A stretch of DNA of 39,744 bases from a virus. Positions 2,128-32,761 of the stretch are shown piece after piece; positions within the stretch are counted from its first letter, which is position 1; the number at the start of each line of letters is the position of its first letter. The notes beneath the pieces were generated by a model that made no database searches, was not told the origin of the DNA, and saw only the letters and a list, made by a program, of their open reading frames with translations. The stretch covers positions 1 to 39,744 of IMG/VR virus record IMGVR_UViG_3300033052_000019, one strand, 5' to 3'. The translations under genes and the position numbers were made by a program.

Positions 2128-3723
2128 TTAGTTCTTGAACAGGGTCTTGACGCTCATGCCGAGGTACGGAACAGACAGAACTTGCACGACCGATTGGCCA
2201 TTGCGCATTGCTGGGATGAAGTCGAACAGCTTCTCGCTCCAACCAGCCAGCTGGTACCAACCGTCCTTCTCGCCGATCGGAGTCGAATCACGTGAGTTCA
2301 GGTTGATTGCGATCTTGACCGCAGTCGCGCCAAACGCGTTTCGAACATCCGAGCCACGGAGCTGGTTAACTTCCATGTCGGACAGAACAACAACAGTATC
2401 CGGTTCGAAGCCAAGCTGCGGCTTCTGGGCAATTGCTGCACCCAGGTTCGTGCCGCCGCCATACGACTTCTTCTCGAGAGACTGGGTCAGAGTCATGATC
2501 GAATCATGGGTATTCATCGCCACGAACTCCGAACGGTCCGAAAACATCGTCAGGCGCAGGTTGTTCGCATCCTTGTTCGCCTTGGCCAGAGCTGCAGCAA
2601 ACAGACATGCCGTCTTGAGAGGCGAACCCTTGACCTTGTAGCGCTGTTCGCTCGTCATGTTGCCGTAGTATTCGTAGCCGTAGCTCCGCATCGAGCCAGA
2701 CACGTCCATGATGATCCAGACGTTTTCGCCAAGCTTAGGCAGATTCCCAAGGGAATGCTCGAGCGCTTGAACGATTGCGCTGGTGACATGTTGGTTGCCA
2801 AATTCAAACACGGCTTCGTATGCGTTCAGGAACGCGAACGGAAACTGCTTCGACTTGGCGACATTGTCCTTGTTCGAGATCACGTCACAGACATGCGTCT
2901 TCAGGACTTCGGTGTCGAGGCCAGCTTGGACGATGTTGCGCAGGTTACGCAGCAAAGCCATGTAGCCGACTTGACCGGACGACACGAGTTCAGTCCAGAT
3001 GTCCTTGTCGGACAGGCGATCCTTGCCACCGAGTTGACCATTCGCAGACAGACGAACTTCCCAGGTGTACGGTGCTTCCAGGGTTTCCTTCATGATCTTG
3101 TCGAACAACACGCCTTGATCTTCGTCCTTCGGAGTCGGGTGCACGATTTGCAGAACATCACGCAGCTTAACAGTACCACCGCGATTGTACTTGGCGAATG
3201 CGTACTCGTTGAACTTGTTGCATGCATCAGCAATGCCACGCTTGATTGCCATTGGCATCTTCTGAACGCCGAGACGTTCCGGTTGCTTGGCATTCTTCGG
3301 AGCTCCGAAGAACATCTTTGCAGCGACAACCATGTCAGCGAGCTGGTCAGCGCGTTGGATCACGTCCTTGACGAGTTGACGCAGTTGCGGATACGACTTG
3401 TTCTGGTCACGCAAGGCCTTGGCGAATGCGGCAGTCAGAACGATCGGCATCGTCCGGATGTTCATCACGGTACGAGCATGGACGATCACATTCGCAACGA
3501 AGTCGAGGTTGCCACGAGCCACGACCTTAGTCATCGCGGCTTCCATGCGCTTCATGGTCTTATTCTCGGACTCGTAGTAGTTCTGGTCCTTGCCATACAG
3601 AGTCGAGACAGCGATTTCGTACAGCTCTTGTTCAGGAGACTTCTTCTCCTGCAGATTGCCATTGCCCGAATAGGCCATGTCAGCAGGAACATTGGTGCGA
3701 CCGCGCGAATTTAGCTTCGACAT
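2128..3723 (-). CDS. Ro60/TROVE domain RNA-binding protein
   Basis: This 531-aa protein has the Ro60 (Rsr) layout. An N-terminal alpha-helical repeat (TROVE) ring covers roughly residues 25-330. A von Willebrand A domain follows, with the metal-site motif DVSGSM at about 340-345, GGGTN further on and SDME near the end. Ro60 proteins bind misfolded RNAs in the ring cavity and Y RNAs on its outer face, and in bacteria Y RNAs tether them to nucleases such as PNPase. The start at MSKLNS follows GGAGAATAAT; an upstream in-frame TTG has no spacing for a site. A Y-RNA-like array lies at 7023-8448 on the same strand, so the RNA partner is probably phage-encoded. A terminator follows the gene. Confidence 0.93.
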   Translation of the reverse strand: MSKLNSRGRTNVPADMAYSGNGNLQEKKSPEQELYEIAVSTLYGKDQNYYESENKTMKRMEAAMTKVVARGNLDFVANVIVHARTVMNIRTMPIVLTAAFAKALRDQNKSYPQLRQLVKDVIQRADQLADMVVAAKMFFGAPKNAKQPERLGVQKMPMAIKRGIADACNKFNEYAFAKYNRGGTVKLRDVLQIVHPTPKDEDQGVLFDKIMKETLEAPYTWEVRLSANGQLGGKDRLSDKDIWTELVSSGQVGYMALLRNLRNIVQAGLDTEVLKTHVCDVISNKDNVAKSKQFPFAFLNAYEAVFEFGNQHVTSAIVQALEHSLGNLPKLGENVWIIMDVSGSMRSYGYEYYGNMTSEQRYKVKGSPLKTACLFAAALAKANKDANNLRLTMFSDRSEFVAMNTHDSIMTLTQSLEKKSYGGGTNLGAAIAQKPQLGFEPDTVVVLSDMEVNQLRGSDVRNAFGATAVKIAINLNSRDSTPIGEKDGWYQLAGWSEKLFDFIPAMRNGQSVVQVLSVPYLGMSVKTLFKN

Positions 3724-3806
3724 ATTATTCTCCAAGAGGAATTGCAGCTTGTATTATTTTTGGTTGATCCCATTGCGAGATCAGATGGAGAATTATAAAT
3801 GGAAAA

Positions 3807-7022: not shown

Positions 7023-7152
7023 AGAATGCTGAGTTAAAACCGATAAGAGGCTTGCAAAAAGCGCCTGTCCTACCATTAGACGACAAGCCGGGATTCGAAC
7101 CCAGATTCGGCGCGGGACGTAGAAGTAACTCTTACCTACGCAACAGCATTCT
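7023..7152 (-). ncRNA. Y-RNA-like permuted tRNA mimic, unit E
   Basis: Minus-strand order: outer stem arm AGAATGCTG (7152-7144), loop box TTGCGTAGG, inner arm TAAGAG (7134-7129), TTACTTCTA, then stem arm GCGCC (7113-7109). A T-arm with loop TTCGAAT follows (7104-7088), a 6-nt turn CTTGTC, a D-arm with AATGGTA loop (7081-7067), stem arm GGCGC (7065-7061), inner arm CTCTTA (7049-7044), TCGGTTTTAACT, and outer arm CAGCATTCT (7031-7023). All three stems are perfect. The acceptor stem is replaced by the 6-nt turn, as expected for a tRNA mimic rather than a tRNA. The outer arm overlaps that of unit A. Confidence 0.72.
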
Positions 7153-7326
7153 TAATCGAAATCCCTGAGATAAAGTCGCAGAGAGATAGTTTTTCGTTGT
7201 CCTGAACCACTAGACGAACCCCATGTAGAAATACTACATTGGCATGGGGTATGGGATTCGAACCCATGTCTCCGCCTGGAAATGGAAGTAGCTCTCAACT
7301 ACGCAACAAGAATTCCGATTAAGAAT
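7148..7326 (-). ncRNA. Y-RNA-like unit A with complete permuted Glu-like tRNA ends
   Basis: The outer stem is 20 consecutive pairs including wobbles (7326-7307 with 7167-7148). The loop box TTGCGTAG follows, then the inner stem GAGAG with CTCTC (7296-7292, 7185-7181). The tRNA-like part has T-arm ATGGG-TTCGAAT-CCCAT (7267-7251), acceptor strand ACCCCAT (7250-7244), discriminator G and encoded CCA (7242-7240). A 15-nt linker leads to acceptor strand ATGGGGT (7224-7218) and a D-arm (7215-7199) in a TTCGTCTAG context typical of glutamate tRNAs. ATTTCCAGGCGG before the T-arm also looks like a Glu (TTC) anticodon arm, but its 5' stem strand is missing. The acceptor pairing is 7/7. Confidence 0.78.
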
Positions 7327-7329
7327 ACT

Positions 7330-7490
7330 AAACAAAGATCCGAGAAAGATCGACAAGAGTAGTTTACGCGCCTTACCATTGGACCAAATCACCATAAAAC
7401 CCTGCATTGGTGGTGACTCCGGGAATCGAACCACGGATCTCGTCCTGTATGAGTGGAAGTAACTCTTACCTACGCAACGGACCTTTGTTT
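7330..7490 (-). ncRNA. Y-RNA-like unit B with complete permuted tRNA ends
   Basis: The outer stem is 13 pairs (7490-7478 with 7342-7330). The box TTGCGTAGG follows, then the inner stem TAAGAG with CTCTTG (7468-7463, 7359-7354). The tRNA-like part has a CTCATAC loop (7453-7447), which would be a Met CAT anticodon, a T-arm with TTCGATT loop (7436-7419) and acceptor strand AGTCACC (7418-7412). Discriminator A and encoded CCA (7410-7408) follow, then a 14-nt linker, acceptor strand GGTGATT (7393-7387) and a D-arm (7385-7370). The acceptor pairing is 7/7 with one wobble. It fits no neighbouring unit, so the permuted order is real. The T-stem needs one bulged base. Confidence 0.75.
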
Positions 7491-7493
7491 AAT

Positions 7494-7835
7494 ACACTTC
7501 AATGGACAGAGGTTGTAGTACAAAACTAAGTAAGTACTAAACGCGTCAGAGCATTTACCGACGCCAAGTTCACCCTACGATTCCGTATTACTACGGATCA
7601 CCGGTTCATCTCCGGCCTGAACTTCAACCACTGCTGATGTTTCCAGTCTTATCCACTATACTGGTTTAATGTAAGGTGAGTGGAGCACCTAAGCGCGGGG
7701 AGCAAACCGCGAGTTTGGTGGGCTGTACTTCCCTAACCCTCTAGTTCCCTTTTGTCGGTAGAACCAGACGTATACGTTGAGCATGACCTACGGAAGTATC
7801 TGAGTCATACCAGGCTATTTGCAACCCATTGTTCT
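7494..7835 (-). ncRNA. Structured RNA candidate between the small gene and unit B
   Basis: This 340-nt stretch has no credible gene but many stems. They are 7516-7521/7534-7539 (TAGTAC), 7543-7547/7560-7564 (GCGTC), 7643-7647/7660-7664, 7674-7678/7686-7690 and 7694-7698/7707-7711. AAGTTCA 7566-7572 with 7618-7624 encloses two sub-hairpins: CCGTA 7583-7587/7592-7596, with a GTAA loop on the minus strand, and CCGG 7601-7604/7612-7615. The nested three-way junction with a GNRA-type loop is typical of ornate phage RNAs found near tRNA clusters. Strand is inferred from neighbours. I cannot assign a family. Confidence 0.5.
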
Positions 7836-8114
7836 TCATGCAACGCTAGGGCCATCATCTTCTGGAACTTCGATGAAAAGATCATCTTCTTCCGGAAAGA
7901 TGTCCTGCGGATATTGATCGGGGTTTGCCTGAACATCGCGCAGAAATTCAACGCGAGATTCGAGCTCTTCCGGCAATTCCGATTCGTACTCGAGCAAGCT
8001 CGCAAATACGATGTAGCTGGACAGCTCACTGATCGCTGTCTCAACCTTTTCGTTTTGACGAAGCCGAGCATTTCGGCAAAGGTTGAGAAGATCTTCAGTC
8101 TTGTGTGTTGCCAT
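7836..8114 (-). CDS. Acidic hypothetical protein inside the RNA array, 92 aa
   Basis: The 92-aa protein MATHKTEDLL...DDGPSVA has a helical N-terminal half and a very acidic C-terminus (FPEEDDLFIEVPEDDG). GGGAAC precedes the ATG by 3-8 nt. The gene sits between RNA units D and B, and the 3' arm of unit D (8150-8143) lies in its leader, so RNA processing and translation may be linked. No family is recognised. Given its position it could be a partner of the RNA units, but that is speculation. Confidence 0.75.
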   Translation of the reverse strand: MATHKTEDLLNLCRNARLRQNEKVETAISELSSYIVFASLLEYESELPEELESRVEFLRDVQANPDQYPQDIFPEEDDLFIEVPEDDGPSVA

Positions 8115-8142: not shown

Positions 8143-8299
8143 ATGTTCTGAGTTTAAATCAAGCAGAGAACTGATCGTTAAATCGGCCGCGTCTCCCAGT
8201 TTCGCCACCTGCCAGCACTTTCGATATGGCCATTGGAGAGGATTCGAACCTCCAGAAGGCTGATAGTTAGAAGTAACTCTACTTTACGCAACAGAACAT
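8143..8299 (-). ncRNA. Y-RNA-like permuted tRNA mimic, unit D (Leu-like D-arm)
   Basis: The outer stem ATGTTCTG (8299-8292) pairs perfectly with C AGAACAT at 8150-8143. The box TTGCGTAAAG follows, then the inner stem TAGAG with CTCTG (8281-8277, 8168-8164) and TTACTTCTA. A T-arm GGAGG-TTCGAAT-CCTCT (8253-8237) precedes a D-arm (8208-8191) reading GTGGCGAAACTGGGAGAC, as in leucine tRNAs. The sequences between the T and D arms do not form a clear 7-bp acceptor stem and carry no clean CCA end. The long variable arm expected for Leu is absent, so this is a mimic rather than a tRNA. Confidence 0.65.
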
Positions 8300-8448
8300 T
8301 TAACAGGATTGGCTGAGATAAATTCGGCAACAGTGGCTTTGTCTCCGGCCCCAGTAGACATGTTACGGAATCGAACCGTAACCCGGTTGGTTTCTTAGCA
8401 TGAATGTAGAAGTAACTGTTATCCTACGCAGCAACCAAGCCAGTTAAA
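8299..8448 (-). ncRNA. Y-RNA-like permuted tRNA mimic, unit C
   Basis: First unit downstream of a late-type promoter. The outer stem is about 17 positions with two mismatches (8448-8432 with 8315-8299). The box CTGCGTAGG follows, then the inner stem AACAG with CTGTT (8420-8416, 8333-8329), whose bases differ from the other units yet still pair. After TTACTTCTA comes a T-arm with loop TTCGATT (8380-8364), a 4-nt turn and a D-arm-like hairpin GTCT/AGAC (8359-8341). No acceptor stem is present. This is the most diverged unit; the D-arm assignment is the weakest part. Confidence 0.6.
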
Positions 8449-8463
8449 TGATCTATTATTTTT

Positions 8464-8471
8464 TATTTATC
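8464..8471 (-). promoter_or_regulatory. Late-type promoter of the RNA array
   Basis: GATAAATA on the minus strand lies between the long inverted repeat and unit C, followed by an A/T-rich run. It would drive units C and D and the 92-aa gene, and probably units B, A and E, as one late transcript. Confidence 0.6.
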
Positions 8472-8811
8472 GTGAGAAAACATGTTGTTGGAAACCGCGA
8501 TCTAATCTTCAACCTTGGTATGCTAGAATTCCGAGCTTGTGCACAGCTCATTGGAACTCACGGAAGACCTTCGTGTTATCTCGGTGGTTAACACTTTACC
8601 ACGGTCAATGCTCTAATCCCATACATCGCGCACGTTCTGTTGCTCAGTCAGCTCGGTGAAGCGTGCTGGAGTGACTACTCCACATCTTCAGCTGCTTCCG
8701 TATTTGCTCAAACGTCTGGGCTTCATGTCCATTGCCATTGACAACCAATTCCAAATCTCGTTCAGTAGATGTCAACCTACCGACGTGGTTCCCAACAACA
8801 TGTTTTCTCAC
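8472..8811 (-). ncRNA. Large structured RNA closed by a 25-bp terminal stem
   Basis: 8472-8496 and 8787-8811 are inverted copies that pair over 25 positions with a single wobble when read as minus-strand RNA. They enclose 290 nt with further hairpins: 8533-8537/8545-8549 (GAGCT, loop holding the palindrome GTGCAC), 8559-8575 (CACG/CGTG with inner pairs), 8584-8588/8598-8602, and 8668-8672/8677-8681 (GGAGT, 4-nt loop). No convincing ORF is present. The size, terminal stem and position next to tRNA-like genes recall large phage RNAs such as GOLLD or ROOL, but I see no motif that assigns it. The strand is inferred. Confidence 0.55.
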
Positions 8812-8830
8812 TTAATTTTGAAAGAGCATT

Positions 8831-8849: not shown

Positions 8850-8879
8850 GCATGAGTTGAATTCTACATAGGCTAACGA

Positions 8880-8918
8880 ATTAGTGCGAATATTTGTGCT
8901 TGAAATATTCGCACTAAT
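8880..8918 (-). terminator. Hairpin after the nucleotide-sugar dehydrogenase gene
   Basis: A perfect 16-bp stem (8880-8895 with 8903-8918) with a 7-nt loop, 8 nt after the stop codon. The minus-strand side lacks a long T run (TTCGTT), so it may act as an RNase-processed or 3'-protecting hairpin as much as an intrinsic terminator. Confidence 0.7.
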
Positions 8919-8926
8919 TTCATCAA

Positions 8927-31702: not shown

Positions 31703-32761
31703 TTAATGCCAGTTGTACGAATTAACTCGCGCGTCATAAAACGCATAGAAGCGCATCATCCAATCCTTGAGCCATCCTTCGAATTGCCCGAGGAGAAGAT
31801 CAGACCGTTCTGGCAGTTCTGTCTTCTCTTTCACTTCGTCCAATTCAACGAATAGATCCTCAAGCAGCTTCGACACTTCTTCAAATGTCCTTTCACCATG
31901 CTTGATCGACAGAAGCAAATCAACTTCTTCTTGTGGGAATGGGAACGACAGCTTCTTATCACGCAGCAATTGGATTGCTTGCTTAGTGATTCGAACAGCA
32001 TGCGCCGTTGCCTTCCAATCGATGCCGGCAGCCTGTTCGGCCGCTTCGGCACGCGATCCATACTTGCTCATCAGATTGTTGACACGATCCAGGGCTTCAG
32101 CCAATGTAATGTTCGACGGATACAGCTTCTCAAGAACACTGATTGCCGGAAGCATCTTGTCCATGTGCTCGTAAGTCGCCATGAACAGATACTTGTCTTT
32201 ATTCGCTTCAACCCAAGGCGTCAAGACTTCAAGACGAGCGTCCGAAGGCGTTGTCTCAAGAACAGTGACTAGATGATCATGGAGCTTGCGCACCGAGGCG
32301 AGACGAGTTCCCTTGATCCCATAGATCTGCGCTTGATTCATCGCATAGCCAATCATGGCCTTGATGTTCGAAGTCAAGAACTTCTTTGTCATGTCATAGA
32401 CAAAGTCTCGGAACAGATTGCTATCATCGGTCAGGACTTGGCCGGCATGGTTCGTCTCCATTTGGAGAACTCCAAAGGCGAGTTCAAGCGCATATGTCTG
32501 TCCACCGATGAAATCATTCGCGAAAACCTGGATCGGGATGTACTCGTAATCGACATCATCTTTAGTGTTGCGAGTCTTGTCACCGCCAGTTGAGACAACA
32601 ACGTTGGTTGGTTTGCGGCCGATCAGAAGCTGTGCCTTCTCAGGAAGGAACACTTCTTTCCAGTCGATATCCGACGATGGAGTGTTGGTTCCGTAAAGGC
32701 GAGACCCGAACATCGTCTTGTAAAGGGTTTGGCGCCCCTTTAACGCTTTATGATTTGCCAT
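31703..32761 (-). CDS. RlaP-like nucleotidyltransferase (RNA repair-type)
   Basis: The 352-aa protein carries the DNA-polymerase-beta-fold nucleotidyltransferase motif GSRLYGTNTPSSDIDWK near residues 20-36 (GS, then DxD), as in the RlaP / PF10127 family described with RNA ligases. Downstream helices fit its C-terminal region. Family members are thought to add nucleotides to RNA ends in repair, which is notable beside a Ro60 gene and tRNA-like RNAs. The start follows GAAGAATAAT. It ends a four-gene late operon that begins at 33750. Confidence 0.82.
   Translation of the reverse strand: MANHKALKGRQTLYKTMFGSRLYGTNTPSSDIDWKEVFLPEKAQLLIGRKPTNVVVSTGGDKTRNTKDDVDYEYIPIQVFANDFIGGQTYALELAFGVLQMETNHAGQVLTDDSNLFRDFVYDMTKKFLTSNIKAMIGYAMNQAQIYGIKGTRLASVRKLHDHLVTVLETTPSDARLEVLTPWVEANKDKYLFMATYEHMDKMLPAISVLEKLYPSNITLAEALDRVNNLMSKYGSRAEAAEQAAGIDWKATAHAVRITKQAIQLLRDKKLSFPFPQEEVDLLLSIKHGERTFEEVSKLLEDLFVELDEVKEKTELPERSDLLLGQFEGWLKDWMMRFYAFYDARVNSYNWH

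What the first reader, a model, noticed from the sequence alone, without database searches (positions are those of the whole stretch)
7148..7490. Units A and B carry complete permuted acceptor stems with CCA
In unit A, ACCCCAT-G-CCA is followed 15 nt later by ATGGGGT. In unit B, AGTCACC-A-CCA is followed 14 nt later by GGTGATT. Both pairs are 7/7 and do not fit any neighbouring unit. This is the order of a circularly permuted tRNA. RNase P and 3' processing at the linker could free genuine tRNA ends. Joining the 5' half (after CG or CGT) to the CC before the anticodon-like loop would rebuild 4-5 bp of an anticodon stem. These units may sit between tRNA mimic and real permuted tRNA.
Basis: partly seen in the sequence, partly recalled or inferred. 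Interest (0 to 1): 0.85.

Follow-up and report, generated by a model that had tools for sequence, protein, structure and literature searches.

The report
Phage Y RNAs mimicking permuted tRNAs
The two 'permuted tRNAs' are tRNA-shaped modules of a cluster of phage Y RNAs, small RNAs that partner a ring protein called Ro which this phage also encodes; the unusual part is that these copies keep a full tRNA acceptor end with CCA, which the reference model of bacterial Y RNAs replaces with a closed loop.

Summary
In detail: on the minus strand, units A and B carry the tRNA 3' half, then RCCA and a short linker, then the 5' half, with 7/7 acceptor pairing to themselves and 3/7 to each other. Each unit is enclosed by a conserved two-helix module (P1 / UUGCGUA·GAYUUUNUCU / 8-bp P2 / NUACUUC). 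I found this or a related module with permuted tRNA-like inserts in more than 30 phage records. TROVE/Ro60 genes occur in 29 of 36 records with these units, including the window (2128-3735), against 2 of 36 comparison records, one of which proved to carry the module. Rfam's Y RNA-like family YrlA matches actinophage relatives below its cut-off, and its consensus has the same permuted order. Two Ro-positive phages found by protein search alone carry units just upstream of ro. So A and B are most likely Y RNAs, a known kind. New here: 12 of 39 permuted units keep N-CCA (p about 6e-13) while the rest mostly have short closing loops; rejoined halves read as tRNA-Glu and tRNA-Met; some phages carry the module inside a normal-order tRNA. 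Nothing indicates splicing; RtcB is absent from all 36 records. Ro binding and RNase P processing are untested.

The parts
2128..3735 (-). Phage Ro60/Rsr-like protein (TROVE domain followed by von Willebrand A domain), the expected protein partner
   Evidence: Pfam TROVE 83.2 bits, VWA_2 31.2 bits; 85.1 bits combined; matches solved TROVE proteins 9l5y and 9kop, E 1e-20
7145..7329 (-). Y RNA unit A, whole: outer stem P1 (arms 7307-7329 and 7145-7167) closing module and permuted tRNA-Glu-like domain
   Evidence: inverted repeat I3; fold z -5.4
7285..7306 (-). Unit A 5' side of the module: TTGCGTA-P2-CTACTTC
   Evidence: 0-mismatch pattern hit; 0.07 hits expected in the window for the pattern at up to 3 mismatches
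7244..7284 (-). Unit A tRNA 3' half: anticodon loop ATTTCCA, T-arm, acceptor 3' strand ACCCCAT
7225..7243 (-). Unit A linker GCCA + ATGTAGTATTTCTAC (discriminator G73, CCA)
7195..7224 (-). Unit A tRNA 5' half: acceptor 5' strand ATGGGGT, D-arm, ACG
7167..7185 (-). Unit A 3' side of the module: P2' and GACTTTATCTC
7314..7506 (-). Y RNA unit B, whole: outer stem P1 (arms 7478-7506 and 7314-7342), permuted tRNA-Met-like domain
   Evidence: inverted repeat I2; fold z -2.9
7456..7482 (-). Unit B 5' side of the module
7412..7455 (-). Unit B tRNA 3' half, acceptor 3' strand AGTCACC
7394..7411 (-). Unit B linker ACCA + ATGCAGGGTTTTAT
7366..7393 (-). Unit B tRNA 5' half GGTGATT..GCGCGT
7342..7359 (-). 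Unit B 3' side of the module: P2' and GATCTTTCTC
7031..7147 (-). Unit C: module enclosing T-arm and D-arm without an acceptor stem
8150..8291 (-). Unit D: module enclosing a permuted Leu-like tRNA module, weak acceptor (5/7)
8315..8431 (-). Unit E: module enclosing a long T-arm and a D-arm, no acceptor

Best explanation
Units A-E are phage-encoded Y RNAs of the bacterial YrlA kind. The outer stem P1, the internal loop UUGCGUA/GAYUUUNUCU and the 8-bp P2 form the module that the phage Ro protein binds (inferred). The tRNA-like domain hangs from P2 at the point where a tRNA would have its anticodon stem, so tRNA 3' half, acceptor and 5' half necessarily appear in permuted order (shown). The tRNA-like domain is probably the effector end, recognised by host tRNA-handling enzymes or nucleases and tethered to Ro (inferred from cellular Y RNAs). 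A and B belong to a subset in which the acceptor is not closed by a short loop but keeps RCCA and a linker, so RNase P and 3' trimming could open it and leave a Ro-bound tRNA mimic with a tRNA-like CCA end (possible, not shown). Ligation of the halves into a decoding tRNA is not needed and not indicated.
For: The same module encloses permuted tRNA-like units in many phages. TROVE/Ro60 is in 29 of 36 records with the units, including the window, against 2 of 36 comparison records, one of which (L047) itself carries the module. In many records ro lies a few hundred bases from the units on the same strand. Reverse test: Streptomyces phage BRock and Brevundimonas phage Marchewka, taken only for their TROVE protein, carry such units just upstream of ro. 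Rfam YrlA matches units of Gordonia phage GMA2, A3Wally and Magritte at 43.1, 40.8 and 36.6 bits, and its consensus has the order T-arm, closed acceptor hairpin, UA, D-arm. P1 covaries: 127 of 135 pairs against 58.6 +/- 5.8 with partners swapped, and P1-2 and P1-3 pair in 27 of 27 units with 4-5 pair types. YrlA is described as an outer stem of 5' and 3' ends bound by Rsr plus a tRNA-like domain modified by DusA and TruB (PMC8394870).
Against: The window units themselves score nothing with Rfam YrlA even at E<=10. YrlA matches in relatives are below the curated cut-off of 69 bits. Seven of 36 records with the units lack a TROVE match (several are fragments, but phiM12 is complete). Six of eight Ro-positive phages examined gave no unit with the strict descriptor. 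P2 pairing was used in selecting units, so only P1 covariation is close to independent. Direct Ro binding was not testable.
Confidence: 0.87

Rival explanations
1. Genuine permuted tRNA genes: RNase P and 3' processing free the acceptor ends, the Ro-type module acts as an intron, and the halves are ligated at the anticodon stem to give working tRNA-Glu and tRNA-Met.
For: Rejoined halves are called as tRNAs of several isotypes at the motif-defined joint; 12 of 39 units keep N-CCA; natural-order tRNAs with the module inserted give canonical tRNAs when it is excised.
Against: Many homologous units have the acceptor closed by tetraloops or no acceptor at all. RtcB in 0 of 36 records; each T4-type RNA ligase family in only 11 of 36. 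Joint position is not constant to the base between units. Ro linkage and YrlA similarity explain the module without splicing.
Confidence: 0.06
2. Y RNAs whose main job is to act as decoys for tRNA-targeting defence nucleases: several different anticodon arms are displayed on stable, Ro-protected RNAs. This agrees with the best explanation on identity and differs on function.
For: Units display many different anticodon-like loops; the idea that YrlA competitively inhibits an anticodon nuclease was put forward for Salmonella (PMC7790460).
Against: No nuclease or binding data; acceptor-less and hairpin-only units in the same phages would be poor decoys.
Confidence: 0.2
3. Decayed or chimeric tRNA genes without function.
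For: ARAGORN and Rfam find no intact tRNA in the window.
Against: P1 covariation, fold z-scores, five copies with the same module in one window, and conservation across unrelated phages.
Confidence: 0.03
4. A new small self-splicing or self-cleaving ribozyme inserted in tRNAs, present in permuted and normal order.
For: Conserved internal loops and exon-like boundaries.
Against: The motif is tied to the Ro gene and resembles YrlA; units without any tRNA exons exist; no known ribozyme family matches the window.
Confidence: 0.02

Closest known systems
Bacterial Y RNA, YrlA (Rfam RF02553; Rsr/Ro60 partner RNA)
   Same: Outer stem formed by 5' and 3' ends, internal loop, second helix, then T-arm, acceptor-like hairpin, UA and D-arm in permuted order; encoded near a Ro gene; phages already reported to carry YrlA (statement cited in PMC7765460).
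   Different: Module sequence UUGCGUA/GAYUUUNUCU is not detected by the Rfam model in the window; acceptor of A and B is a full 7 bp with RCCA and a linker of 18-19 nt (CCA included) instead of a short closing loop; five copies in one window.
Permuted tRNA genes of red algae and some archaea (from own knowledge)
   Same: 3' half precedes 5' half; 7-bp acceptor; ends to be freed in the linker.
   Different: No bulge-helix-bulge motif seen; the flanking sequence is a Ro-linked structured module; many homologues have closed acceptors, so joining into a tRNA is not the shared function.
Permuted tmRNA (Rfam RF04321)
   Same: A tRNA-like domain in permuted order.
   Different: No tag reading frame was seen as part of the units, full D-arms are present, and there is no match to the permuted tmRNA model in the window.
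Theta ribozymes beside phage tRNAs (PMC10879173; title and abstract only)
   Same: A structured RNA element beside phage tRNA genes.
   Different: An HDV-like self-cleaving ribozyme; no such family matches here.

Membership tests
Bacterial Y RNA / YrlA | Encoded by a genome with a Ro60/Rsr (TROVE) gene, usually nearby | tested here: met
   TROVE+VWA at 2128-3735, about 3.3 kb from the nearest unit; 29 of 36 related records
Bacterial Y RNA / YrlA | 5' and 3' ends form a long stem interrupted by a conserved internal loop | tested here: met
   P1 covariation 127/135 and inverted repeats I2, I3
Bacterial Y RNA / YrlA | tRNA-like domain with T-arm and D-arm in permuted order | tested here: met
Bacterial Y RNA / YrlA | Match to the Rfam RF02553 covariance model (a detection criterion rather than a biological one) | tested here: not met
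   No match in the window at E<=10; relatives in three actinophages match below the cut-off
Bacterial Y RNA / YrlA | Physical binding to Ro | not testable with these tools
   needs binding assay or co-purification
Permuted tRNA gene | 3' half upstream of 5' half with self-complementary acceptor | tested here: met
Permuted tRNA gene | Rejoined halves form a canonical tRNA | tested here: met
   Glu(ttc) and Met(cat) by ARAGORN; A has C at position 37 and B a 9-nt loop at that joint, so quality is imperfect
Permuted tRNA gene | Splicing signal and machinery | tested here: inconclusive
   RtcB in 0 of 36 records; T4-type RNA ligases in 11 of 36 each and none in the window, which is a fragment; host enzymes cannot be assessed
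Permuted tRNA gene | Mature circularised or processed tRNA in cells | not testable with these tools
   no RNA-seq

The most novel reading that the evidence does not exclude
The RCCA-type units are opened at the acceptor by RNase P and 3' trimming, giving Ro-bound, two-piece tRNAs with a CCA end that can be aminoacylated or sensed as tRNA; the normal-order tRNAs carrying the same module in the anticodon arm (L130, L190 and others) are the one-piece version of the same object. This would be a class of Y RNA-tRNA chimeras not described for cellular Y RNAs, to my knowledge.
Probability: 0.25. Interest if true: 0.78.

Novelty: new variant of a known kind. Interest (0 to 1): 0.55.

Why it matters
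What bacterial Y RNAs do with their tRNA-like end is an open question. A large set of phage Y RNAs, some with a closed acceptor and some with an intact RCCA acceptor and recognisable anticodon arms, plus normal-order tRNAs carrying the same module, gives a natural series for testing whether the tRNA end must be charged, cut, modified or only shaped. It also warns that tRNA finders and Rfam miss these RNAs: units in phiM12, Phosso, A3Wally, Zooman and BRock overlap no annotated RNA gene, and the one in Trina overlaps a 'tRNA-OTHER' pseudogene.

Tried and rejected
Group I intron, ribozyme and tmRNA readings: no Rfam match in the window at gathering thresholds, and only miRNA look-alikes and T-arm fragments below them. 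A self-splicing small intron was my working idea after because of the normal-order tRNAs; I set it aside when TROVE proved to be linked to the motif. The exact joint of the halves could not be fixed: TACTT|C fits A, L074 and L129, TACT|TC fits L190 and L067. A scan for short units with an exact 3' pattern found nothing because the pattern was too strict, and so did a first pattern for the second sequence type. A search for close relatives of the window's Ro protein in viral contigs found none, so conservation of CCA in close relatives of A and B could not be tested. In the bacterial genome collection, 17 pattern hits were returned and none passed the structural scans. One comparison record for TROVE (L047) turned out to be a true carrier of the motif.

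Full report
Observation. On the minus strand the two units are as described. Unit A has ACCCCAT-G-CCA, 15 nt, ATGGGGT; unit B has AGTCACC-A-CCA, 14 nt, GGTGATT. Self-pairing is 7/7 in both (one G-U in B) and cross-pairing is 3/7; a chance 7/7 partner at that distance arises at about 1.4% of positions. T-arms and D-arms lie where a permuted tRNA would have them. ARAGORN sees no tRNA in the raw window.

What encloses the halves. Before each 3' half stands TTGCGTA-8 nt-NTACTTC; after each 5' half stands an 8-nt complement of that 8-mer and GAYTTTNTCTC. Pattern scans and a structural script show the same arrangement in many other phage contigs: P1 - UUGCGUA - P2 (8 bp) - NUACUUC - insert - P2' - GAYUUUNUCU - P1'. 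In 27 aligned units the outer helix P1 pairs at 127 of 135 positions, against 58.6 +/- 5.8 when partners are swapped, with four or more pair types at most positions. P2 was part of the selection and is weaker evidence. Unit A folds with z -5.4 and its P1 is about 23 bp long; unit B folds with z -2.9. The window holds five such units: A and B with full acceptors, D with a weak one, C and E with T-arm and D-arm but no acceptor.

What the inserts are. Across phages the insert is a permuted tRNA with a full acceptor, a permuted tRNA without acceptor, or a plain hairpin of a few dozen bases. In 39 non-redundant permuted units the closing sequence of the acceptor falls into two groups. Most are short loops, often UUCG, GNRA or CUUG; 12 have N-CCA directly after the acceptor 3' strand (binomial p about 6e-13; one of the 12, CCCAG, is probably chance, and units are not fully independent by descent). 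Among 11 units with RCCA, read, the discriminator base agrees with the usual bacterial base for the isotype in 10 (G for Asn, Trp and Glu; A for the rest; rule from own knowledge; L269 is read here as Tyr from its loop). The exception is a Glu unit of Sinorhizobium phage Phosso with A73. The base before the 5' half is U in 7 of the 12, as RNase P prefers (own knowledge).

The decisive link. The window encodes a TROVE plus von Willebrand A protein, the Ro60/Rsr architecture, at 2128-3735 minus, related to solved TROVE proteins. TROVE occurs in 29 of 36 records that carry the units and in 2 of 36 records that had matched only by sequence pattern. One of those two, L047, carries the module itself; the other, L161, does not. 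In many records the units lie a few hundred bases from ro on the same strand. The link also works in reverse: of eight Ro-positive phages taken only for their protein, BRock and Marchewka carry permuted units just upstream of ro. The other six gave none with that strict descriptor.

Family. Rfam YrlA (RF02553) matches units of Gordonia phage GMA2, Microbacterium phages A3Wally and Magritte, all below its cut-off of 69 bits. The printed consensus has the outer stem, internal loop, second helix, T-arm, closed acceptor hairpin, UA and D-arm. YrlA is described as an outer stem bound by the ring protein Rsr and a tRNA-like domain with D, T and acceptor arms, modified by DusA and TruB and tethering PNPase (PMC8394870). 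Phages are already reported to carry Ro and YrlA (PMC7824862 and PMC7765460). The window's own units are not found by the Rfam model even at E<=10, so they are a divergent sequence type. A second type, with CCGA and GGTTATC in place of TTGCGTA and TACTTC, occurs in Phosso, Trina, A3Wally, Zooman, Magritte and IMG/VR contigs; its CCGA, UUAUC and CACUUG stretches resemble animal Y RNAs as I remember them, which is a lead and not a test.

Splicing. RtcB is absent from all 36 records. Two ATP-dependent RNA ligase families are each present in 11 of 36, not in the window, and mostly in the longer records. The joint that rebuilds an anticodon stem differs by one base between units. Homologues with missing acceptors could never give a tRNA. 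Splicing is therefore unlikely as the shared function, though not excluded for single units.

A variant worth attention. In L112, L130, L190, L129, L045 and L067 the module is closed at P1 and sits as a 52-61 nt insert in the anticodon arm of a tRNA in normal order. ARAGORN calls none of them as they stand and calls Arg, Pro, Gln, Ile and Val tRNAs when the insert is removed; L129 gives an irregular anticodon and one L067 unit none. L130 ends in CCA. Records of L112, L130, L190 and L129 also encode TROVE. In three dimensions these would be the same object as an RCCA-type Y RNA opened in its linker. This is my reason for not dismissing RNase P processing.

Verdict. Units A and B are real, structured and tRNA-derived, and most likely the tRNA-like modules of phage Y RNAs partnered with a phage Ro protein: a known kind, in a variant with an intact RCCA acceptor. 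Shown: sequence, pairing, covariation, Ro linkage, two closing types. Inferred: Ro binding by the module and effector role of the tRNA end. Open: RNase P cleavage, charging, decoy or tether function.

Noticed in passing
window 8470-8812 (-): A separate 343-nt stretch closed by a 25-28 bp terminal stem, MFE -121.8 kcal/mol, z -5.4, no Rfam match and no convincing similar sequence in the fetched loci: probably another structured RNA of unknown kind.
   Followed up: partly
window 7507-7830 (-): About 320 bases between unit B and the small ORF at 7836-8114, not covered by a Y RNA unit and without similarity to the fetched loci; function unknown.
   Followed up: partly
window 31703-32761 (-): phrog_388 nucleotidyltransferase with a Pfam RlaP match (RNA repair pathway polymerase-beta family), possibly part of the same RNA-repair equipment as Ro.
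   Followed up: no
window 8879-8919: Perfect 17-bp inverted repeat with a 7-nt loop between the RNA cluster and the UDP-glucose dehydrogenase gene, possibly a terminator-like hairpin.
   Followed up: no
L112:600-840, L130:1650-1830, L190:1400-1620, L129:1540-1800, L045:3090-3310, L067 (two units): Normal-order tRNAs with the Ro-type module inserted in the anticodon arm.
   Followed up: partly
L327:2460-2620 (phage phiM12) and L330 (phiN3): Unannotated permuted tRNA-Glu-like unit with a closed acceptor (CGCAA / ACGCAA), 14-bp outer stem, in Sinorhizobium phages; TROVE not found in phiM12.
   Followed up: partly
L344:901-957 (Gordonia phage GMA2): Pistol ribozyme above its cut-off directly after a tRNA gene (826-897) in a phage tRNA array.
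   Followed up: no
L360:9791-10048 (Brevundimonas phage Marchewka): Permuted tmRNA match above its cut-off in a phage.
   Followed up: no
L045:2488+, L067:7714- and 7950-, L129:1225+: Further units with a third spelling of the module (TGCRTAGTG..GGATTTCTTC or GACTTCTTC), same permuted tRNA layout, in phages rich in tRNAs.
   Followed up: no
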